Part shown: one piece after another, positions 10,993-28,140 of the stretch
Position numbering within the stretch: position 1 is the stretch's first letter
How the letters are laid out: every line of letters starts with the position of its first letter
NCBI RefSeq assembly: GCF_042453785.1
Contig: NC_091670.1
Span: 39,815,501-39,879,500, forward strand
DNA: 64,000 nucleotides
Source: Malus domestica
Lineage: Eukaryota > Streptophyta > Magnoliopsida > Rosales > Rosaceae
Reading direction: 5' to 3'
Made by a program: the position numbers and the translations under genes
The notes under the pieces: generated by a model
Databases searched by the model: none
Seen by the model: only the letters and a program-made list of their open reading frames with translations
What the model was told of the DNA's origin: nothing

Positions 10993-12034
10993 ATGGGTTC
11001 TCCTGCAGTGTTTGTGCAGCTCTCAGTCCTCCTACTGAGCTGCTTCGCTGTCTTCGGTGATGTAATTACCACTTTACCCGCCATTCCTCCACACCACAGC
11101 ATTCACTATTCTCACCCAGTAGCTTCCCCAACCCACCCACCGGCACACCCGCCTACTCACGGCCACCACCACCACCACCCACACCCACACCCACACCCAC
11201 ACCCTCCCACTCACTCTCCGGTCCACCCACCAGCTCACTCTCCGGTCCACCCACCAGCCCACTCTCCGGTCCACCCACCAGCCCACTCTCCGGTTCACCC
11301 ACCAGCCCACTCTCCGGTTCACCCACCAGCCCACTCTCCGGTTCACCCACCAAACCCCCACCACCACCACCACGGCCACCCACCGGCCCACGCTCCCACT
11401 CACGTCCCGGTTCAGCCTCCGAGCCACCCTCCAACCCACCATGCACCAACTCCTCACCCTCCGGCTCACAGCCCGGTACACCCACCGGTTCACCCACCTA
11501 TGTACCCACCTAAGAAGCCTTTCCCAAGGAGCTTTGTAGCGGTTCAAGGCGTCGTTTACTGCAAGTCTTGCAACTACTCCGGCGTCGACACCCTTAACGG
11601 CGCCAAGCCAGTTCTTGGTAAGTCCATAAATGTGGCCATTTTATAACTATTATTACAGACGTCACATGGTTTGAGTTTACCCATTTTTCTAACAATTTGT
11701 TTGAATTAATTTTTTTCTTTTGTTTTCCTGGGCAGGTGCTACGGTAAAGCTCCAGTGTAACAACACGAAGTACCCATTGGTTGTGAAAAAAACCACGGAT
11801 AAGAATGGCTACTTTTTTATCACGGCACCAAAGACCGTCACCACCTTTGGAGCTCACAAGTGCAAGGTGTCGCTCGTCTCAGCACCCTCCACCGCCTGCT
11901 CCAAGCCGTCCGATCTGCATGGTGGACTGAGCGGTGCACTCCTGAGGCCTGTGAAGCCATTTGTCTCCCAGAAGCTCCCATTCCTTCTCTACAATGTCGG
12001 TCCATTTGCCTTTGAGCCAAAATGTCCTCGTTAA
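10993..12034 (+). CDS. AGP31-like His/Pro-rich cell-wall protein with PAC domain
   Basis: Two exons, 10993-11617 and 11736-12034, joined in phase across a GT-AG intron (donor GTAAGT, acceptor GGCAG), giving 307 residues. Residues 1-22 are a hydrophobic signal peptide, so the product enters the secretory pathway. Then comes a long Pro/His-rich region with runs of His, HP repeats and six copies of the octapeptide HSPVHPPA. The C-terminal ~120 residues hold six cysteines, starting with C190 and C193 (YCKSC). This matches the PAC / Ole e 1-like domain of non-classical arabinogalactan proteins such as Arabidopsis AGP31. In that family the Pro-rich part is hydroxylated and O-glycosylated and the protein binds cell-wall polysaccharides. 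The antisense ORFs across the repeat are shadows. Confidence 0.9.
11212..11355 (+). repeat. Coding minisatellite, 24 bp x 6
   Basis: Six near-perfect 24 bp units, each encoding HSPVHPPA (the last ends PN), lie inside exon 1 of the AGP31-like gene. The units differ mainly by C/T at one third-codon position. This is recent in-frame tandem expansion and is likely to vary between alleles. Confidence 0.9.
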
Positions 12035-12136
12035 TTTAATTAAAAGTTCAGTAAAGCTTGTCTTAATTAATGGGCTTTGTACTTAAATAGTAATCCTAGA
12101 TTAATGTGCTATTGTTAGGGTTTCCCCTCGCATGGT

Positions 12137-12584
12137 TTGAATGAGTGCCTGTTTGGAAATAAGGCTTTGTTATTTGGGTTACAATAATGAATGGTAATTG
12201 ATCTGGATTTTGGTTTCGTCCATATAATCTTGAATTAATTATATGTTAAGTGCTTTTAGTAAGACGATATTTTAATGTGAACTTGAATTTAAATACAAAA
12301 AGAAGAAAACATCGTGAGGATTTTGGAATTGGATCTTCTCTGAGGCAACAACCCCTCGGGCTTGAATGAGTGCCTGTTTGGAAATAAGGCTTTGTTATTT
12401 GGGTTACAATAATGAATGGTAATTGATCTGGATTTTGGTTTCGTCCATATAATCTTGAATTAATTATATGTTAAGTGTTTTTAGTAAGACGATATTTTAA
12501 TGTGAACTTGAATTTAAATACAAAAAGAAGAAAACATCGTGAGGATTTTGGAATTGGATCTTTTCTGAGGCACAACCCTTAGGG
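12137..12584 (+). repeat. 225 bp tandem duplication
   Basis: 12137-12361 is repeated almost exactly at 12362-12584 (period 225, only a few mismatches and a one-base gap near the end). It begins about 100 bp after the AGP31-like stop codon and probably includes its polyadenylation region. The near identity implies a recent event. Confidence 0.9.
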
Positions 12585-14094: not shown

Positions 14095-14887
14095 TGATGT
14101 GATAAGTCTAGATGGACTTTTATTAGGTTTGAAAAGTCTTGGAACAAATCCCATGGCTCAGTTTGAGGGATATACCTTGGTTTCTGATGTGGATCAATTT
14201 CAATTCCACGAATTAGAGTTGCAGTGGAACTCTGCAAAATTATCTGCCCATGCCAAGCAAAAGATACATCCCTATAAATACAAATACAGAGGCGTTGTGC
14301 AACGGAAGAAGACCTCCAATTCAACACACAAACTGTCATGCACAAACCTTTTCCTTTTTCGCCAACACATCTTCAGTTTGGATAAACAACACTGTGAAGG
14401 CAACCGGCGAACATCTTCAGTTTGGATAAACAACATTGTTGCTGTAGAATCAGCCGACCGTGAAGCACCTTCAGTTTGGATAAACAGCACTGTGACAGGG
14501 CTGACTGGTTATCTATCCAAGTCTCGGTCGAGAAGGATTTTCGGATCCTTATTGGCAGAGGTCATCTCATTAACCTTTTCGACGAAGTGAGGTGTTACAA
14601 GTTACTACATTCAACACATTGAAAGTCGAATTTGATATTGAACTTCACAGAACTAGCAGCCTTGTCTTCAGGCTCTAGAACCCAAAGCCCAAGACGTGTT
14701 CCTTCCTCGGCCTCAATCGCAAAATTCAGAAGTCAGCAGCGCACCCAACGCAACATCAACAAATTTTACTCACTGGAGGAGCTTGGCCCTCGAGTTGGCA
14801 CGCCTTGCACATAACCAATGGACGTAGTTAGCTTATTAATTATTTGGCATGCACGCTACGTAGGCTTGATAGTTTTTGGAGTCAACA
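14095..14887 (+). mobile_element. Solo LTR related to the 24964-25881 LTR
   Basis: It starts TGATGTGATAAG and ends GGAGTCAACA, with AATA immediately before (14091-14094) and after (14888-14891) as a probable target duplication. From the TATA box (TATAAATA at 14273-14280) to the end it aligns with the 3' LTR at 24964-25881. Both carry the same three-fold 'CATCTTC...CAACA' repeat, 'TATCCAAGTCTCGGTCGA', 'GCAGCCTTGTCTTCAGGCTC' and 'GACGTAGTTAGCTTA'. No internal element sequence follows, so this is an LTR left after recombination. Many CpG and other differences suggest it is older than the 25 kb copy. Confidence 0.75.
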
Positions 14888-19186: not shown

Positions 19187-19191
19187 CATAC
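19187..19191 (+). repeat. 5' target-site duplication CATAC
   Basis: CATAC here exactly matches CATAC at 25882-25886, directly after the LTR end. Together they define the insertion limits of the retrotransposon. Confidence 0.85.
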
Positions 19192-19192
19192 T

Positions 19193-20899
19193 GTTTGGGC
19201 CCAATACGAGGCGCTGGTCATTGGTTTGGGCCTCCTTCTTGACTTACACGCCACTCGTGTCCTCGTCCTCGGGGATTCTGAATTAGTGATTAACCAAATT
19301 AATGGGTCTTTTCGCTGCATGAGTTGTACTCTGGCGCCTTACCACATGGTCGCCAGCTATTTGGCCGAGTCTTTTGACGGTGTTACATTCGAGCATGTTT
19401 CTCGGGTTCATAATACCGACGCAGACGAGTTGGCTCAAATCGCCTCCGGTGCACAACTCCTGGGGGGCAAGCTAGGCCGGGAGATACCAATATTACGACA
19501 ATTATACCCGGCCTTGGTTGATCAACAAATCCTCCGTCGAGACAATGTGATACGCACCAGGGTCATGTCCCTGCCTTCGTTGTTAGATCGACAGGACTCT
19601 ATAGAAATTTGCGCGGCCGAGGCAGTACCAGATGATTGGAGAAAGCCCATTATGCAGTACCTTGACAATCCTATCGGAAAACATAGTCGCAGGACACGGG
19701 TTCACGCCACGAATTATGTCACGTACCAGAACGAGTTGTACCGAAAGGGCGAAGATGGTTTGTTATTGCTATGCCTCGGCCCCCAAGAGAGTGCTCGAGC
19801 GATCGCAGAGGTTCATGAAGGGGTATGCGGAGCTCACCAGTCTGGACGAAAAATGCGATGGCTACTCCGACGACACGGTTATTTTTGGCCGAGAATACTG
19901 AAAGATTGTATCGAGTTTGCACGAGGATGCGTGCAGTGCCAAATCCACGGGCCTATACAAAGGGTCCCGGCCGAATCACTACATTCGGTCATTAAGCCGT
20001 GGCCGTTTAGAGGATGGGCCATGGATGTAATCGGCAAAATCATGCCGACTTCCGGAGCTGCTAAGCATGCATGGATAATGGTCGCAACTGATTACTTCAC
20101 TAAGTGGGTCGAAGCAAAATCATATGCCGAGTTAACATCTAAAGAAGTTTGCGATTTCGTGGAGGAACACATTGTGACCCGATTCGGTGTTCCAGAAACG
20201 ATCATAACTGACAATGGAACAATCTTCACAGCCGAAAGGTTCAAAGAATACACGGCCAATTTAAAAATTCGGCTGGAACAGTCCACACCGTATTATCCAC
20301 AGGCGAATGGGCAGGCCGAGGCAAGTAATAAAGTGTTGAACGGCATCCTCAAAAAAATAATAAAAGAAAGGCCTGGCATGTGGCATTTGAAGTTAAACGA
20401 GGCATTATGGGCATACCGAACGTCGCCCCGATCGGCGACTGCAACAACCCCATACGCATTAACCTACGGACACGATGCGGTGCTACCAGTCGAGTTGAGC
20501 ATAAATTCATTGCGATTAATTGAACAAAGTAGTTTGTTTAGCGCCGAATATAATCAGTCCATGAGACAGGAACTGGAAGATTTGGAAGAGGCACGACTTG
20601 ATGCTTATAACTTACTGGTGGTACAAAAACAGATTGCCGAGCGAGCCTATAATCAGAAGGTGCGACAGAAAACGTTCGGCGAGGGTGAATTGGTGTGGCA
20701 AACGGTGTTGCCCATAGGATTAAAAGATCCTAGGTTCGGCAAGTGGTCGCCGAATTGGGAAGGGCCGTTCATTGTGCATAAAGTATACGGCAAATGGGCG
20801 TATCATCTTAAAGACCGGACTGGAGTAGTTCACAAATTACCAATTAATGGGAAGTTCTTGAAGAAATACTATCCGGTCACATGGGAAATGCGTGAATAA
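19193..20899 (+). pseudogene. Gypsy pol remnant: RNase H end and integrase
   Basis: An open frame enters at the deletion junction and runs to a stop at 20899 (about 568 codons). The first ~70 residues are the C-terminal part of an RNase H fold, with GDSEL and the NTDADELA motif. The integrase follows. Numbering from codon 19226, it has an HHCC zinc finger (H197, H204, C235, C238), a catalytic core with D267, D329 and E365 (35-residue spacing between the last two), and a GKWxPNWEGPF C-terminal module. The integrase frame is intact, but without gag, protease, reverse transcriptase and a start codon the element cannot move by itself. No chromodomain is seen, which fits the Tat/Athila branch. Confidence 0.9.
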
Positions 20900-20980
20900 A
20901 AAAATTGTTGTACCAGTACAAAAAAAAAATCATTCCATTAAGATTGATAGGTATTACAAAAATGATTAGGTCAAATACAT

Positions 20981-23900
20981 TCAAGGAGACGAGGGAAGAA
21001 GAGTGCTGAGCAGAGCCTTCAATTCCAACCACCGCACGTCGGTCATGATGACTTCGGCTTGCCCATTCTTTTTGTCCAGCTTCAGCCGCTCGACCCGTTT
21101 TTTAGCCGCCGCATACTCAGTTAGGCGATCCTTCCCACCTGACTCGAAGTCTCTCGCAAGCTCAGAAGCAATGGCCGACCGGCGTTTTGCTAGTTCGGCC
21201 ATTTGACGGTCGAGCTCGGCTAACGCTTCTCCTTTTGCCCGTAGATCGTCAATCTTCGGACGGAGGGTGTCTTGAACGGCCGTGGCGGCTTACAGGTCTT
21301 GTTCGGCCTTCAGCGCAGTCTGGAAGATACTAAATGTCTCCCGAACGCGCTCCAAGGCAGACGATGCCCGAACAATGGCATCTCCGCTCAGGCGACCGTC
21401 GGCTCCAAGGTCGTTCAGACACACGCCGAGCAGATCAAGATCGTTGCGTTCAAGTACTTACGAAGATGAGAGCGACAGGACTTCCCGCAACTGGGTTAAG
21501 GCGCTTGGATCGGCAGCCTCAGTCGGAGCCGCCGAAGGGCCGGACTCTGCAGTCGTGCTGGAAAGGAGGGCTTTGAATTCAACCTCCCATGAAGCCTGCA
21601 CGAATAGACAAGGTTAAGCTTAGAGGAAGTCATGACAAGAATAGCAAGGTGTCATTTTTTTAACCTGCCGAGAGGAGACCTCGGCCATGTCCCCAGGATC
21701 GTTGCTCGAACCTAAAGAACTCAATGGCCGAGCCCAGTGTCTCAGATTGCTTCTCACTTCACGCGGCCTATGGAAGTTATCTACGTTTGATGGCCACTGA
21801 GGCGGCCAGGAAATATAGATAACGCCCTTCGGCGCATAGAATTGACGGTGAAAAGAATGTACAGGCACCTAACATTTAATATTTTCCTTGTTTAGAATTC
21901 TAAAGCAGAAAAGCAATCAGGAGGAGACAATTGAAGGTACTTACAAAAGCCGAGGTAACCTCTTGTGGAGGAATGTGGAAGCCTTGGTCTTGAGGATGGA
22001 CCGGCGATTCCGCCGTGGCCTCGGGTTCCTCGAGCAGCCGTTTGCCACGGTCGGCTGCCGATGGGCCGACTGGCGCAGCTGCTTCAGGGGAGGCAGGGAC
22101 GTCCTGGTCCTGAGAAGGAACGAGAGGTTCGGCCACCGGGGTCGGTTCCTCGACCGTGCGCTTGCCACGATTAGCCGAGGAGGGGCCGGTTTGAACCGCC
22201 ATCTCGGATACTGGAGGAGGTTGTCGACGAGCATGAGGACGATGCGCCAGCGGGACCTCGTCGCTCCCCTCACTCTCTTCCAACACGAGGACCGAGGGCG
22301 TTGGATTCTTGGGAGAGGTTCCCTCGGTTGTAGAAACCGCCTGTTGTGAGACAGGTGCCTTCTCGATAGAGGGAGGGACAATTGATGCGCCGGCCACAGA
22401 GGCAGGCCGTCTCTGCGGCCAAAGCCGGCTGTTTCTCGACCCCAGAATGACCGGCGACGGGAGAAGGGGAAGCACTGGGAGTCGTCGTGTGACTGGAGAT
22501 AACGTGGATCTCCCGTGCACCTTTCTTCGCCATTTGTTTAACCCGCTTAGCAGGCGGGGAAGGCTCGACAGCCGGCTCGGCCTCTTGGCGAGGCCGTTTG
22601 ATCAGCACGGCCCTACCAGCGGGTTTGTCCTTTTGGGCCACGACCGATTTTTTCCCGGCTGTGGCAGCGGCAACTGCCTCCGTCTTTCTCAAAGGCCGAC
22701 TACCTAAAAAGATAAAGACAATTCAGTAAGGCAAATCAATATGCAAGGTTGATGGAAAGGAGGAAAGTGGAACAAGTACCTTGAGGATGAGGGGCTGAGG
22801 CCTTCTTAGGCCGGTCACCGAAGAGTCTGCTAAGCACCTCTCCGACCGGCGCACCAAAGAATTCCTGGGTGTATTTCTCCCACCACTCGCCAAAGGTGTC
22901 GGTGCAATGGGTTTCCGGGGTGGCTGGTCGAAGGCGGAATTTTTGGCAGCGCTCTTGGAACTCCCTCACGACGGTTCTACACTCCTTCTCAGAGGAACGA
23001 GGTTCGCGTCCACGGCTTAGGACCGTTCGGGAGGAGAGAAAGGGAATAGGGCAGCCATGAAGGTAGCCGAGCTGTCGGGCAAGGAAGTTCGGATGATATA
23101 CTTCCCAACCTGACCGTTTCCCATCACAGCCGAGAGGGAGGTCGCGAGCAAGCACAAACGACCCTCAGGTCTGACGAAGATCGGCGTCTTCCTCCGCGCT
23201 CCATGGGGAGGTAGGCAGCCTGATGGAGGAAGGGTAGTCTCGACGACGACATATTAGGAACTCGTCGTTGGAGAAGTCGTCGAGAGCGAAGAGGTACCGA
23301 AATACCTCTTCGGCTTGATGGGGAGGTGTCGGTCGAGAGGCCAGTTGAGGCCCAAGCGCCTCTGTTGGTGAGAATTCAGCTATGGCCGGCCGAAGGGAGG
23401 CGAAGTATACCTGCAACCAGAGTTGGAAGATCCAGAGAGGACCATTCTGGTGCGGGTCAACCTTGTGGAGGGTCGCCTCGGCCAGGCAGCGGAAGAGTTG
23501 GGCGAGAATGTTGGAACTCAGTGCCAATACGTGACCACTAGCCAGGGCTTCGGCTACCGGCATGTTCTCGACCAAACACTTGTTTGACTTGGTACAACAA
23601 ATGTATTTGTTGTACCAGTAGAAGAGGAAGGCTTCATGCTCTCCCTCTCGCATGTCCTCTTCTCCTCGGCCGGCGAAATGGAGATAGAGGGTGTTGTAAT
23701 TACAGAAGTTCTTGTGGAGCTTCTGAATGTCTTCCTTCGACGGGATATGACCGTCACGGTTCAAGGTCTCGGAGGCCCGACGATCGAAGAGCGTTTTCTG
23801 GTTGATATTCGACGGATGCCCAGAGAGGGTCGCGTCGACAGGGATCCCGGTCGCCGAAGTCCCCAGAATGGCAGTGATATCCAGGATGGTGGGACCAATG

Positions 23901-24340
23901 GGACCCAGAGGAAGGACCATTGTGTTGGTGGCCGAGCACCAGAAGCACAGAGCGGCTTGGAGAAGCTCCTTGTCGGGAACGATTTCCATAGACGAAAGGA
24001 GGATGGCGTCGTAGATGCCAAGAGCCTTCCATTGCTCGCCGAAGAGTCGTTCCATTCGAACGACCCAGGCTGCCCAGGATGTGGTCGTCGAGGGCCAGGA
24101 GCCCTGGGGCTTAGCCGCATCCCATCGCGACCATTCAAACCCTTGAAGTAAGGGTGTTAGGCAGTGCTCCTGTAGAAGGCCGATGATAGTCGGCGGTATT
24201 GTAGCCTTGAAGAGAGGGCCCAGGATTTGGTACTGGGTGCTCATGTCGTTTTCAAACCGGATGGTCTTGATCGAGCTCCGATCAAAAATCTTCTGATGTT
24301 GGTCACACTCCCTGGAAAGCTTGGAAATGAAGGACGCCAT
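20981..24340 (-). pseudogene. Antisense plant-mobile-domain (PMD) gene carried by the retrotransposon
   Basis: Four exons on the minus strand join in phase: 24340-22780, 22703-21945, 21868-21665 and 21595-20981, with GT-AG introns of 76, 76 and 69 bp. The first ~330 residues match the PMD (aminotransferase-like plant mobile domain) pattern: WVVRMERLF, WKALGIYDAILLS, ALCFWCSATNTM, LGPIGPTILDITAILG. A basic nuclear-localisation-like stretch (KRPRQ ... PAKRVKQMAKK) follows, then a Pro/Ser/Glu-rich linker with a two-copy repeat around DRGKR, and a Lys/Glu-rich probable coiled coil at the C-terminus. It is broken by an in-frame TGA at 23167-23165, a one-base frameshift near 22400-22440, and TAAs at 21460-21458 and 21292-21290. 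PMD proteins have known host members (MAIN/MAIL1 in Arabidopsis) and many transposon-borne members. The role in the element is unknown. Confidence 0.82.
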
Positions 24341-24485
24341 TGTGAGAAAGAAGCACGGAGTAGAAGGGTTGTCTGGGTTGGGGATTTAAAGACGAAGACT
24401 TGGAATAGGAGAAATGTACTAGAAATCAATGGCAGAGGATTTCAGGAAGTTTGAGAGCGTAAAGGTACAAATGAGGGAATTTCGG

Positions 24486-24493
24486 TATTTATA
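24486..24493 (-). promoter_or_regulatory. TATA box of the antisense PMD gene
   Basis: Read on the minus strand, CTCTATAAATACC lies about 150 bp before the PMD start codon at 24340. The gap is a pyrimidine-rich leader. This suggests the gene had its own RNA polymerase II promoter inside the element, separate from the LTR promoter. Confidence 0.6.
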
Positions 24494-24947
24494 GAGTTAT
24501 AGGGGGAAGAGCAATCGTTCGAAATTCAAAACAAAGGACAAAATCGACCGAAGGAATTATCGATCATGACGAACATTTGGGAAATGCGGTTGAGAAGACC
24601 GAAGGTCAGGGTTTTGGGGACGCAGGATTGCGTGTGACGGCGAAATTAATGACGAAAGACGGTTCGACGCCCGCACGATGACAAGTGGGCTCACGGACTG
24701 AGGAAGTGGCTCGCGGATTGAGATAGTGGTCATGATGGCAAGACGGTTCAGGCTGCTGCACGCCTTAGACGTCATTATGGGGGATTGGCCATGTTAGAGG
24801 ACGCCACGTGGCGAGTGGGTTAGCAGGATCAAGATCGTGCGATCGTGCTCAATAAATGCGCCTTGGAACTCGGGTATTAGGATCCTGAGTGGTAGATTCG
24901 CTTCTTCAAGGCCGAAACTCGGCCGAAGGTTTCAAGCCGAGGACCTC

Positions 24948-24963
24948 AGAAGCGAGGGGGCAA
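24948..24963 (+). other. Polypurine tract
   Basis: AGAAGCGAGGGGGCAA directly precedes the LTR start TGTTTGGG. This is the expected place for the plus-strand primer of reverse transcription. Confidence 0.7.
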
Positions 24964-25881
24964 TGTTTGGGCCCAAAATAATAGTTTGGGCCGAGGGTAG
25001 GATCACTCTCGGCCCAGGAGGCCGGGCGGTAAAAGGACCATGGATCGGTCAACCCGTGGGAGTCCAAACCTAGGGCGGTTAAGACGAATCCTCGTGCAAT
25101 AGGGAGTCTCGACGGGATCGGATCTCCAGGAAATTAATCCAGCTTAGCTAAGGACTAGGTTCATAGTCCTAATAGGTGTAGGACTGGTCGAGGTGATCCG
25201 GAGAGGGAAACCTAGTCCGAGTAGGAGGTAAACTCGGACTCAAGGTTCAGTACTATAAATAGGGGACGCTGTGCATCAGGAAAGAGCCCTACAAAATCAA
25301 TACAAAATTGCCCTGCGCAAACTCTCACAACTTGTGATTTTTCTTTTTCTTTTTCGCTGACACATCTTCCGTTGGCATCAACAGCACTGTGAAAGCAACC
25401 GGTGATATCTTAAGTCGGCATAGATAGCTCTGTCACCGTAGAATCAGCCGATCTCGCAGCATCTTCCGTTGGCATCAACAGCACTACGGCGAGGACGACT
25501 GGTTACCTATCCAAGTCTCGGTCGAAAAGGATTTCCGAATCCTTATTGGTCGAGGTCATCTCATCAGCCTTCTCGGCGAAATGAGGTGTTACCAGGTTAT
25601 TGTATTCGGCACGTTGGAAGCCGAATTCGGTTCGTGAACTTCGCATTTTAGCAGCCTTGTCTTCAGGCTCTAGAACCCAAGAGGCCGAGAATTGTTCCTT
25701 CCTCGGCCGCAATCGCAAGACACAGAAGTCATCAGCGCGCTCAACGCAACATCAACAAATTTACTCCTCGGTCGAGCTCGGCCGACGAGTTGGCACGCCC
25801 CGCAATCACCGAAGGACGTAGTTAGCTTAGAAAATACTCGGCATGCGCGCCACGTAGGCTCTGTAGTTTCTAGGGTCAACA
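24964..25881 (+). mobile_element. 3' LTR of the gypsy element (918 bp)
   Basis: Starts TGTTTGGGCCC, ends GGGTCAACA, and is followed by the target duplication CATAC. A TATA box (TATAAAT, 25254-25260) lies in GTACTATAAATAGGG and marks the U3/R area. Downstream are three imperfect copies of an 'ATCTTCCGTTGGCATCAACA'-type unit (25364-25500), also present in the solo LTR at 14.4 kb. Confidence 0.88.
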
Positions 25882-25886
25882 CATAC
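25882..25886 (+). repeat. 3' target-site duplication CATAC
   Basis: Identical to 19187-19191. Confidence 0.85.
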
Positions 25887-26207: not shown

Positions 26208-27899
26208 TCAAGCGTCAAGCGGCTTATCCTCAACATCATTCGCAGCAACATTCGGCTCAGCACCTTGCCCTTCCTCCGTGGGTGGCTGAACTTGCTCATC
26301 CTCGGGCAGTGGTTCCTCCACATAATCATTCTCAAAAGCATCTGGAGGCACCTCATAGATTCTAACTTGGGGCTTCGACGGGTCCTTAACAAGCACATAC
26401 TTGCCCTCACTTAATTTCATACACAAGTCCACAATCGACTTCACAATCCCCCACATACTGTTTTGGTTGAGATTAATCTGCGAGGCAAACTCCTTGGGCT
26501 TGTATCCTACCACAGCCAAAATCACATGGTTAAAGTGATCACGAGGATGAACCCTCGAAACGTAACCCAACTTCATCAAATCGGCACTGGCCAAGAGGGC
26601 TTGGGCAGTCCATTTAGCCAACTTGTTGGCATTGTTCTTAAGCTCAGTTGCCAATACAGCACCCCTCTGAGTCTCCAATTTCTGCCTCCAATCGACACCC
26701 GAATACTTGGGATCAAACTCATTAAGCGCATTCAGGGTCAAAAACGACCTCTGATTATTCACCTCCATAACACTTTGCACCTCACACCTCGCAACCAGAT
26801 ACATTCCCTCCTCAAGCTTCCACCTTCGGTAGCGATAAGCAACGGAAGCAACCTCCTCTCCTTCGTTTGCAAACGGGTTAGGCTCATCGAATGTGACCTT
26901 ATTCCCATCCCTAACCAAAACCTGCTGTGAAAAGTTCTGATTGATATAAGCAGCCTCGACACTCAACGAATAAGCTGAATTGATATCATCCTTAGCTTCA
27001 GGCAATGGCTCCTGAGATGTCTCGTGAACCGAAAGCAAATCCAATTGCGACCCATCACGTTTATCAAAGAACAATTTGTTCCCAACTTTCTGAACAACAA
27101 TATCCCAAGAGTAAACTGACCGGGGTGCGCACATAAGAGTCGAGAGAATGGTGTCAGTGGCAAAGACTGTGGCTTTATCCTCGTTTGCGAGGCGGCGGAT
27201 GACGGGGTCGTCAGTGGTGGTGACCTTGAAGAAGTTCCTGTTCTTGAACCGCTCGAGCCGCCTCTCGTTCTTGGGGGTGATTCGATCGACGGAGCGATCG
27301 TAGAACTCGAGTCCGCCGCAGAAGAGGAGATCCTCCGGCTCCGGAACCGAAAACGAGAGCTTCGAGAATGTGGAGAAGGGGATCTGTTCGAGCATGTTCC
27401 ACTCAGGTTGGATATCGACGGAAGATTTGAAAACCGCAGCTTCTCGGCGCGGGGCATTGACGTTGGACCGGTTCATGTTGTACTGGCGGTCACGGCGGGC
27501 TCGCTCCTTCTCGGCCTCGCGCTTCTTGGCCTCGACCTCCTCGTCGCGGCGGTGGGGGAGCTGTCGCTGCTGCTGGAACCGCCACTTGGGGCCGAATCTG
27601 GGCCGCGGCGGGGGCTTTCCATCGACGAGACGGAACGACGCGTCGTCATCGGCGGAGCCGGGGAACGACTCACCGTTGGAGAAGTCGAAGACGGCGTCGG
27701 ATGGGTTCTTGGAGCGGGCAGGATTGTTGAAGGTGCGGGTCCAGTCGGCGATCCGGCCGAGCTTCTCGGAGCGGGAGAAGGGAGCGAAGGGCACGTTTTG
27801 GGGCAAATTGGAGGTGGTGGTTGGGGTGGTTGCGCTGTCCGGTGGGCCCCACCCGTCGGGGTTGAAGGGGACGCCGCCGACTTCGAAACCTTCGACCAT
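26208..27899 (-). CDS. TIF3D1: Translation initiation factor eIF3 subunit d
   Basis: A single exon encodes 563 residues, close to the family's usual length, and plant eIF3d genes are typically intronless. I chose the ATG at 27899 (MVEGFEVGGVPFNPDGWGP) because the PDGWGP segment is the conserved N-terminus. The open frame continues upstream to 28121, but those residues look like untranslated leader. Family blocks are present: FAPFSRSEKLGRIADWTR, a Lys/Arg/Glu-rich RNA-binding stretch (RREAEKERARRDRQYN), RNFFKVTTTDDPVIRRLA, then the large cap-binding-like domain. The C-terminus is acidic, as usual. eIF3d is a cytoplasmic eIF3 subunit that helps recruit mRNA to the 40S ribosome and can bind certain caps. 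No defects seen. Confidence 0.97.
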   Translation of the reverse strand: MVEGFEVGGVPFNPDGWGPPDSATTPTTTSNLPQNVPFAPFSRSEKLGRIADWTRTFNNPARSKNPSDAVFDFSNGESFPGSADDDASFRLVDGKPPPRPRFGPKWRFQQQRQLPHRRDEEVEAKKREAEKERARRDRQYNMNRSNVNAPRREAAVFKSSVDIQPEWNMLEQIPFSTFSKLSFSVPEPEDLLFCGGLEFYDRSVDRITPKNERRLERFKNRNFFKVTTTDDPVIRRLANEDKATVFATDTILSTLMCAPRSVYSWDIVVQKVGNKLFFDKRDGSQLDLLSVHETSQEPLPEAKDDINSAYSLSVEAAYINQNFSQQVLVRDGNKVTFDEPNPFANEGEEVASVAYRYRRWKLEEGMYLVARCEVQSVMEVNNQRSFLTLNALNEFDPKYSGVDWRQKLETQRGAVLATELKNNANKLAKWTAQALLASADLMKLGYVSRVHPRDHFNHVILAVVGYKPKEFASQINLNQNSMWGIVKSIVDLCMKLSEGKYVLVKDPSKPQVRIYEVPPDAFENDYVEEPLPEDEQVQPPTEEGQGAEPNVAANDVEDKPLDA

Positions 27900-28140
27900 A
27901 ATTGCTGAATTTGTGAGATTCAGAGGAAGACAGTGGAAGTCGGAAGCTTTACTCCCGGTTGGGTTTGCGCTTAAAACCCTAGTGTGCGTACGGTTATCAT
28001 GCCATGTGAATTTACCGTTCTGCCCCTGGCCGTTATGAATTGTTGGTGATTCTGGGTCTTGAATATCGACTAAGGTACGGGGGGTTCTCCTAGTCCAATT
28101 ATATTTTATTAGGCCTCTCAAAGTTTTCGAAAATTAAGGG

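What the first reader, a model, noticed from the sequence alone, without database searches (positions are those of the whole stretch)
20981..24493. Antisense, intron-bearing PMD gene inside a gypsy element, with its own TATA box
Seen: a minus-strand gene with four exons joining in phase sits between sense-strand pol and the 3' LTR, entirely within the target duplications. It has its own TATA box. Established: PMD domains occur in host proteins (MAIN/MAIL1) and in plant transposons, and Tat-lineage elements often carry extra ORFs near the 3' LTR. Inference: because the genomic RNA is sense, antisense introns are not spliced before reverse transcription, so the gene can keep introns through transposition. 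A nuclear PMD protein made from the opposite strand might counter host silencing or regulate the element. The NLS-like basic stretch fits a nuclear role.
Basis: partly seen in the sequence, partly recalled or inferred. Interest (0 to 1): 0.75.

Follow-up and report, generated by a model that had tools for sequence, protein, structure and literature searches.

The report
Jumping gene's backwards, intron-bearing helper gene
A family of copy-and-paste jumping genes in this plant genome carries an extra gene written backwards and interrupted by what look like three introns; its protein has been kept by natural selection, although the particular copy in this window is a broken one.

Summary
At 20981-24340 (minus) lies a four-exon plant mobile domain (PMD) gene between pol and the 3' LTR of a Ty3/gypsy Tat element with Ogre-type features. 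The window copy is a relic: a 6.7-kb insertion (19192-25881, TSD CATAC) without gag, protease or RT; its PMD frame is broken in exons 1, 2 and 4.

The same genome holds over 100 relatives. Of 30 aligned copies, 16 read through all four exons as one 1,048-1,049 aa frame; unspliced reading ends in intron 1. TATAAATA and the ATG are in 30/30, intron-1 donor GT in 29/30, the other splice dinucleotides in 30/30. All 109 best-scoring integrase places carry the gene, or part of it, antisense. PMD-exon dN/dS is 0.07-0.08 in 25 of 25 between-group pairs (pol 0.07-0.10 at dS above 0.3), but 0.10-0.62 within groups. No intron-1-less copy was found against 73 with intron 1.

Antisense accessory ORFs, PMDs in Ogre elements and an own antisense promoter (Grande) are published. 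My searches showed no conserved three-intron antisense PMD gene. Nuclear anti-silencing or regulation remains inference; no RNA data were available.

The parts
19187..19191 (.). left target-site duplication CATAC
19192..25881 (+). truncated Ty3/gypsy Tat element with Ogre-type features (6,690 bp; full-length relatives 13,426-13,522 bp between LTR outer ends)
   Evidence: 97.7% identical to L028 over 19198-25881; 15 LTR pairs
19192..19204 (+). remnant of the 5' LTR (TGTTTGGGCCCAA) joined directly to pol
19199..20899 (+). 3' part of pol: end of the second RNase H and the integrase
   Evidence: tblastn of L012 pol residues 633-1198 at 96% identity; Pfam domains on L012
20981..21595 (-). antisense gene, exon 4 (two in-frame stops in this copy; its end lies 82 nt from the pol stop)
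21596..21664 (-). proposed intron 3 (GT-AG, phase 0)
21665..21868 (-). antisense gene, exon 3 (204 nt in 30 of 30 copies)
21869..21944 (-). proposed intron 2 (GT-AG, phase 0)
21945..22703 (-). antisense gene, exon 2: linker with NLS-like basic stretch (frame shifted in this copy)
22704..22779 (-). proposed intron 1 (GT-AG, phase 1)
22780..24340 (-). antisense gene, exon 1 with the plant mobile domain (one in-frame stop in this copy)
   Evidence: PF10536 match at 22877-24019
24486..24493 (-). TATA-box motif TATAAATA of the antisense gene, present in 30 of 30 aligned copies
24964..25881 (+). 3' LTR (TGTTTGGG...GTCAACA), preceded by a purine-rich tract
25882..25886 (.). right target-site duplication CATAC

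Best explanation
This is a dead copy of an accessory gene that is a standing component of a recently mobile Ty3/gypsy element of the Tat lineage, with Ogre-type features. Shown by sequence: the gene lies antisense between pol and the 3' LTR, has a conserved TATA motif about 150 nt upstream of its ATG and three short AT-rich stretches with intron signals, and in intact copies encodes a 1,048-1,049 aa protein (PMD, then a basic NLS-like linker, then a C-terminal part that looks helical to me) kept by purifying selection. Inferred: Pol II transcribes it from its own promoter, convergent with gag-pol; the transcript is spliced; the protein enters the nucleus and acts in trans on the element's chromatin or transcription, most likely against host silencing. 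Also inferred: because the replicated RNA is the sense strand, the spliceosome does not see these introns during the life cycle, so they persist through transposition.
For: Gene present wholly or in part at 109 of the 109 best-scoring integrase places, antisense in each. TATAAATA 30/30, ATG 30/30, intron-1 donor GT 29/30, other splice-site dinucleotides 30/30; 16/30 fully open when spliced, with unspliced reading ending at codon 534 or 544, inside intron 1, in all 16. Introns 69-90 nt in 30 copies, and 61-68% AT against 36-47% AT in exons in seven copies. PMD exon dN/dS 0.07-0.08 with dS 0.60-0.69 in 25 of 25 group A/B pairs; pol 0.07-0.10 in the 12 of 21 pairs with dS above 0.3; the other five frames of exon 1 (L028/L023) give 0.14-3.2. 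0 spliced exon1-exon2 junctions against 73 exon1-intron1 junctions in the genome. Recent activity: L018 LTRs differ at 1 of 945 sites and its accessory frame is open. Host PMD proteins MAIN and MAIL1 act in silencing (PMC5418596, passages).
Against: No RNA or protein evidence: transcription, splicing and nuclear import are untested. 14 of 30 aligned copies are not fully open. Constraint is weaker at short distance: PMD-exon dN/dS is 0.10-0.62 in the 20 within-group pairs (highest where dS is 0.005 or less), for example 0.26 for L018/L028 against 0.08 for pol of the same pair. Exon 2 is weakly constrained (0.37-0.78 between groups, above 1 in two within-group pairs). The PMD gave no solved-structure relative by sequence and no usable model, so its biochemistry is unknown. 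The anti-silencing role rests on analogy with host PMD proteins and on published speculation made for MULE, not gypsy, PMDs. A second family in the genome carries the antisense PMD in one uninterrupted frame (L025), so introns are not needed.
Confidence: 0.6

Rival explanations
1. The antisense protein is a structural or replication helper (nuclear entry of the pre-integration complex, integration targeting, particle assembly) rather than a regulator of silencing.
For: Between-group constraint on the PMD exon is like that on pol; NLS-like stretch in 16 of 16 intact copies; PMC7264820 discusses nuclear import roles for antisense ORFs (part 2).
Against: A replication helper would more simply be made from the sense RNA with gag and pol; a separate antisense promoter and mRNA suggest separate timing (inference). 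No direct test.
Confidence: 0.25
2. The antisense transcript itself is what matters: it forms double-stranded RNA with the sense genome and feeds small-RNA control; the protein is incidental.
For: Convergent arrangement, 82 nt between the ends of the two frames; PMC7264820 proposes dsRNA roles; PMD genes give phasiRNAs in tea (PMC10673657, passages).
Against: PMD-exon dN/dS 0.07-0.08 between groups, and exon lengths that differ by a multiple of three among the 16 open copies, show selection on protein sequence.
Confidence: 0.05
3. A chance or passenger open frame: a captured host gene fragment hitch-hiking without function.
For: The window copy and 13 of the 29 aligned relatives are not fully open.
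Against: Present in all 109 best-scoring members, with purifying selection on the PMD exon and on exons 3-4; intron signals and TATA motif conserved.
Confidence: 0.02
4. The introns are not spliced; exon 1 alone gives a 534-544 aa PMD protein that ends in intron 1, and the downstream frames are separate or unused.
For: The unspliced frame of exon 1 already contains the whole PMD.
Against: Exons 3-4 are under constraint (dN/dS 0.09-0.23 in the 21 between-group pairs that differ there); exon 4 has no stop in 124 of 150 scored places; splice sites are conserved. Both isoforms could exist.
Confidence: 0.08

Closest known systems
Grande (maize) gene23 and Retand/RIRE2 antisense ORFs (aORF-3R)
   Same: Tat-lineage elements; antisense gene between pol and 3' LTR; for gene23 an own upstream promoter and a nuclear product are reported (PMC7264820 parts 1-2 of 3; PMC11963269 abstract and passages)
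   Different: In Retand 97% of clusters have TRP28 (PF04195); PMD and introns are not mentioned in the main text of PMC11963269 (0 occurrences); the gene23 paper itself is not held
PMD-carrying Ogre elements (Neumann 2019, PMC6317226)
   Same: PF10536 found in 57% of Ogre elements; aRH between RH and INT matches here (passages), and tRNA-Arg primers are stated for Ogre in PMC9289625
   Different: The passages seen do not give the orientation or exon structure of these PMDs; that survey predicted ORFs of at least 250 codons with getorf, which would show an intron-bearing gene only in pieces
PMD-A1/A2 clades of gypsy-encoded PMDs (Ikeda 2017, PMC5418596)
   Same: Gypsy-encoded PMD distinct from the free-standing PMD genes L001-L003 (tree)
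   Different: No reference sequences were at hand to place this family in A1 or A2; the word antisense does not occur in that paper's main text
Host PMD proteins MAIN/MAIL1 (PMD-C)
   Same: Same Pfam domain
   Different: L001-L003, the best PF10536 matches of this genome and presumably its PMD-C genes (my inference), are only 25-28% identical to the element protein over partial stretches and lie on another branch
HTLV-1 HBZ
   Same: Antisense, spliced accessory gene of a retroelement with a nuclear product (PMC1459196, title in a listing only; PMC11963269 passage)
   Different: Unrelated protein (recalled); starts in the 3' LTR (title of PMC1459196) instead of an internal TATA motif

Membership tests
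Ty3/gypsy, Tat lineage | RT-RH-INT order with an additional RNase H | tested here: met
   RVT_1, RT_RNaseH, RVT_3, then rve in L012 pol
Ogre/Retand arrangement | aRH between RH and INT | tested here: met
   RVT_3 at 595-712 between RT_RNaseH 444-546 and H2C2/rve 831-999 of L012; criterion from PMC6317226 (passages)
Ogre | primer binding site complementary to tRNA-Arg | tested here: met
   PBS of three relatives (L028, L024, L018); the L028 form is the exact complement of the end GTCCCACCGGGCGTG plus CCA, the other two differ by one base. Of 11 genome places with that tRNA end or close to it three were read and ARAGORN called tRNA-Arg(tct) in two. Criterion from PMC9289625. The window copy has lost its PBS
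Ogre | gag-PR and RT ORFs separated by a spliced intron | tested here: inconclusive
   stop-to-stop frames holding PR and RT overlap by 26 nt in L012 and L018; splicing not testable
Ogre | position in an RT/INT tree with reference elements | not tested
   no named reference elements used
Retand | antisense ORF between pol and 3' LTR encoding TRP28 (PF04195) | tested here: not met
   antisense gene present, but Pfam finds PMD and no PF04195 in exons 1, 2 and 4 of L012; exon 3 (68 codons) was not scanned
Plant mobile domain proteins | PF10536 match over the curated cut-off | tested here: met
   136.9 bits, profile 1-347, E 1.3e-39 for L012; window copy 132 bits with one stop inside
Protein-coding gene with spliceosomal introns | GT-AG introns restoring one frame; constraint on the protein | tested here: met
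Protein-coding gene with spliceosomal introns | spliced transcript | not testable with these tools
   no RNA data

The most novel reading that the evidence does not exclude
The antisense orientation acts as an intron shelter: it lets an LTR retrotransposon carry a complete intron-bearing nuclear gene, promoter and all, through endless reverse transcription, and the introns are older than the family. Intron 1 has the same phase (1) and nearly the same place (codon 520 against 524) and intron 2 the same phase (0) as in a free-standing PMD gene (L009, C11) that groups with the element PMDs, so either the element took the gene up as unspliced DNA, or host PMD genes were domesticated from it introns included.
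Probability: 0.35. Interest if true: 0.75.

Novelty: new variant of a known kind. Interest (0 to 1): 0.57.

Why it matters
Antisense genes of Tat elements have been described for years without known function. Here one carries a domain that host proteins use in silencing, with a clean gene model (TATA motif, intron signals, four exons) and clear constraint, so expression, location and effect on silencing can be tested directly. It also shows how a retroelement could keep spliceosomal introns, and surveys that look only for uninterrupted ORFs will see such genes only in pieces.

Tried and rejected
Rejected: the 14348-14887 LTR-like piece as the 5' LTR (79% identity, while L024 and L028 LTRs are 95-97% identical to the window LTR); a processed copy at C6:21100515 (L047: introns present but readable through); C-terminal homology between L009 and the element (hhalign probability 0.2%). 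A structure model of the 391-aa window fragment was useless (pLDDT 33.5; no fold search made). No solved-structure relative by sequence at E up to 1. The exon2-exon3 junction pattern and a PBS pattern did not complete and not repeated. One search failed on stops in a window stretch without an open frame, on a wrong frame, on search terms. Two papers (PubMed 22544262 and 23423698) are not held.

Dropped before counts: of 32 gene-strand sequences, L042 (no homology) and L020 (nested insertion) were left out of the 30-copy alignment; L009, L010 and L025 were not put in (other families). L039-L041 end inside exon 4 and each has an early stop in exon 1. dN/dS of the accessory gene used 10 of the 16 intact copies; pol used 7 copies. 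The exon blocks were cut by codon number, so their borders are approximate.
Full report
WHAT IS IN THE WINDOW. The finding's gene model holds at the level of signals: exons 24340-22780, 22703-21945, 21868-21665 and 21595-20981 on the minus strand, each intron beginning GT and ending AG. The frame of this copy is broken: one stop in exon 1, a frame-shifting 11-nt loss in exon 2 relative to L028, and two stops in exon 4. The element itself is a 6,690-bp relic at 19192-25881 flanked by CATAC (19187-19191 and 25882-25886). It keeps about 13 nt of the 5' LTR, joined directly to the RNase H/integrase part of pol; gag (L045), protease and RT (L012) of relatives have no match in the whole window at E up to 1e-3. 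Between 14888 and 19188 the fetched loci share only short scattered matches with the window (L009, L010, L020), and the LTR-like piece at 14348-14887 (79%) belongs to something else.

THE FAMILY. The window lies in an unnamed 651-Mb genome of 19 contigs (a 17-chromosome apple-like Rosaceae is my guess from recall of chromosome number and size). A PF10536 search scored 117 of 1,706 first-look candidates and listed 118 matches; 95 are 1,143 nt long like the window's and 82 of those have no stop. An LTR search scored 40 of 3,195 candidates: 15 pairs 13,426-13,522 bp apart, one pair 10,552 bp, one pair 3,692 bp (outer ends) and six unpaired, the window's among them. The gene is antisense in the first 16 pairs (13 from the list; three read as L039-L041); the stretch fetched between the LTRs of the short pair has no match to it (L042).

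FIXED ANTISENSE GENE. An integrase search scored 109 of 12,864 candidates, all at 95% identity or more. Of these, 75 have the PMD exon on the opposite strand 1,953-2,055 nt away and none on the same strand; 101 have exon 4 on the opposite strand 78-95 nt away; 105 have at least one of the two. The last four were read directly: three have exon 4, and one has lost the 3' exons but keeps part of exon 1. So 109 of 109 carry at least part of the gene. All lists are the best-scoring candidates only, so older or more distant members are under-represented.

GENE MODEL. In 30 aligned copies (window included) TATAAATA and the ATG are in 30, intron-1 donor GT in 29 (L021 lacks it), and the other five splice-site dinucleotides in 30. 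Sixteen of 30 read as one frame of 1,048-1,049 aa with only the final stop; in all 16 the unspliced frame ends at codon 534 or 544, inside intron 1. Among these 16 only exon 2 varies in length (767 or 770 nt), while introns are 70-76 nt; over all 30 copies introns are 69-90 nt. Introns are 61-68% AT and exons 36-47% AT in seven copies; no ATG lies between TATA and start in five copies checked. Pfam finds the PMD in exon 1 (136.9 bits) and nothing over cut-off in exons 2 and 4 of L012. A basic stretch (KRPRQE, PPAKRVKQ) is in 16 of 16 intact copies. Exon 4 has no stop in 124 of 150 scored places (of 825 candidates).

SELECTION. Ten intact copies fall into group A (L015, L018, L024, L028, L037) and group B (L023, L029, L031, L032, L033). 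For the 25 A/B pairs exon 1 has dS 0.60-0.69 and dN/dS 0.07-0.08; exon 2 dN/dS is 0.37-0.78; exons 3-4 0.09-0.23 in 21 pairs, the other four (L015/L018 with L029/L033) being almost identical there. Within groups (20 pairs) exon 1 gives 0.10-0.62, the highest where dS is 0.005 or less, exon 2 up to 1.18 and exons 3-4 up to 0.84. Pol of seven copies gives 0.07-0.10 in the 12 of 21 pairs with dS above 0.3, and up to 0.24 in the rest. For the same pair L018/L028 exon 1 gives 0.26 and pol 0.08, so the PMD exon is not everywhere as constrained as pol. Exon 1 differences L028/L023 fall 31, 24 and 159 on codon positions 1-3, and the other five frames give ratios of 0.14-3.2; the 0.14 is one sense-strand frame, probably because its variable positions coincide with third positions of the real frame. 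The much higher dS of exon 1 than of neighbouring introns and exons, and the near-identity of L029/L033 with L018 in the 3' exons, suggest that the copies are mosaics; this does not remove the coding signal but makes single-tree dating of the gene unsafe.

INTRON RETENTION. The exon1-intron1 boundary (pattern for the commoner intron forms, up to 3 mismatches) occurs at 73 places, all listed with the GT; the exon1-exon2 and exon3-exon4 fusions occur at none. No positive control was run for intron 3, and the intron-2 search did not complete. It gives no evidence that splicing occurs.

AGE AND TYPE. LTR pairs differ at 1/945 (L018, TSD TTTAC), 12/920 (L024, TSD AATAC) and 8/918 sites (L028; its 3' LTR is followed by primer-site sequence, so no TSD). 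The PBS matches the 3' end of tRNA-Arg(UCU), and a second RNase H lies between RH and integrase: Ogre-type features by passages of PMC9289625 and PMC6317226. A reference RT tree was not made.

RELATIVES OF THE GENE. In a tree of 12 PMD proteins of this genome the element PMDs join L009, a PMD gene with no pol match within the 9.9 kb held (support 100/99, but long branches are flagged), apart from L001-L003. L009 is 32% identical over 481 columns; by my own reading of its splice sites it has intron 1 in phase 1 at codon 524 (304 nt) and intron 2 in phase 0; the element has phase 1 at codon 520 and phase 0. The alignment around intron 1 is loose, L009 lacks a counterpart of intron 3, and no C-terminal homology was detectable. 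A second element family (L025, pol 42% identical) carries an antisense PMD in one uninterrupted 941-codon frame, so introns are not obligatory.

LITERATURE. [quoted passage not shown] 0 mentions of PMD or intron). Grande gene23 has an own promoter and a nuclear product (PMC7264820: parts 1-2 of 3). PF10536 is in 57% of Ogre elements (PMC6317226: passages). PMD-A clades are exclusively gypsy-encoded, and anti-silencing was suggested for MULE PMDs (PMC5418596: passages). My searches (listings) showed no paper on an intron-bearing antisense PMD gene, but the 2011 survey of extra ORFs and the gene23 paper are not held, so priority is uncertain.

HOW IT MOST LIKELY WORKS. Shown: a conserved antisense coding gene with a TATA motif and intron signals. 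Inferred: separate Pol II transcription, splicing, nuclear import, action in trans on silencing or transcription. I put about 0.95 on a functional protein-coding accessory gene, 0.9 on splicing, and about 0.5 on a nuclear regulatory or anti-silencing role.

Noticed in passing
14348-14887: LTR-like piece, 79% identical to the 3' LTR at 24964-25881 from its position 380 on; remnant of another, related insertion
   Followed up: partly
26208-28121 (-): Uninterrupted frame of an eIF3 subunit d-like protein (PF05091, 654 bits); the element inserted about 320 bp from its stop codon
   Followed up: partly
10993-12034 (+): Pro/His-rich protein with a 12-nt-period repeat array; a Pollen Ole e 1 domain is split over two frames (21.9 bits, under the cut-off, and 56.6 bits)
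   Followed up: partly
12134-12572: 214-nt direct repeat with 225-nt spacing, 99% identical
   Followed up: no
L028 and L023, 3' flank of the 3' LTR: The 3' LTR is followed by primer-binding-site sequence, as in tandem elements sharing an LTR
   Followed up: no
L014, L026, L027 exon 2: Subfamily with an exon 2 of 842 nt, 75 nt longer than 767, from a tandem duplication
   Followed up: no
exon 1 of group B copies (L023, L029, L031-L033): Exon 1 is far more diverged from group A at silent sites (dS 0.6-0.7) than the neighbouring introns and exons: apparently mosaic elements
   Followed up: partly
L025:5225-8047 antisense: Second element family with an uninterrupted 941-codon antisense PMD frame
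   Followed up: partly
C8:24705242-24708933: Short LTR pair (3.7 kb) whose fetched inner stretch has no match to the antisense gene
   Followed up: no
L050 (C5:26037101-26037950): Copy in which the pol end is fused to mid exon 1 near a shared TTGTTGTACCAGT repeat, without exons 2-4 between them
   Followed up: no
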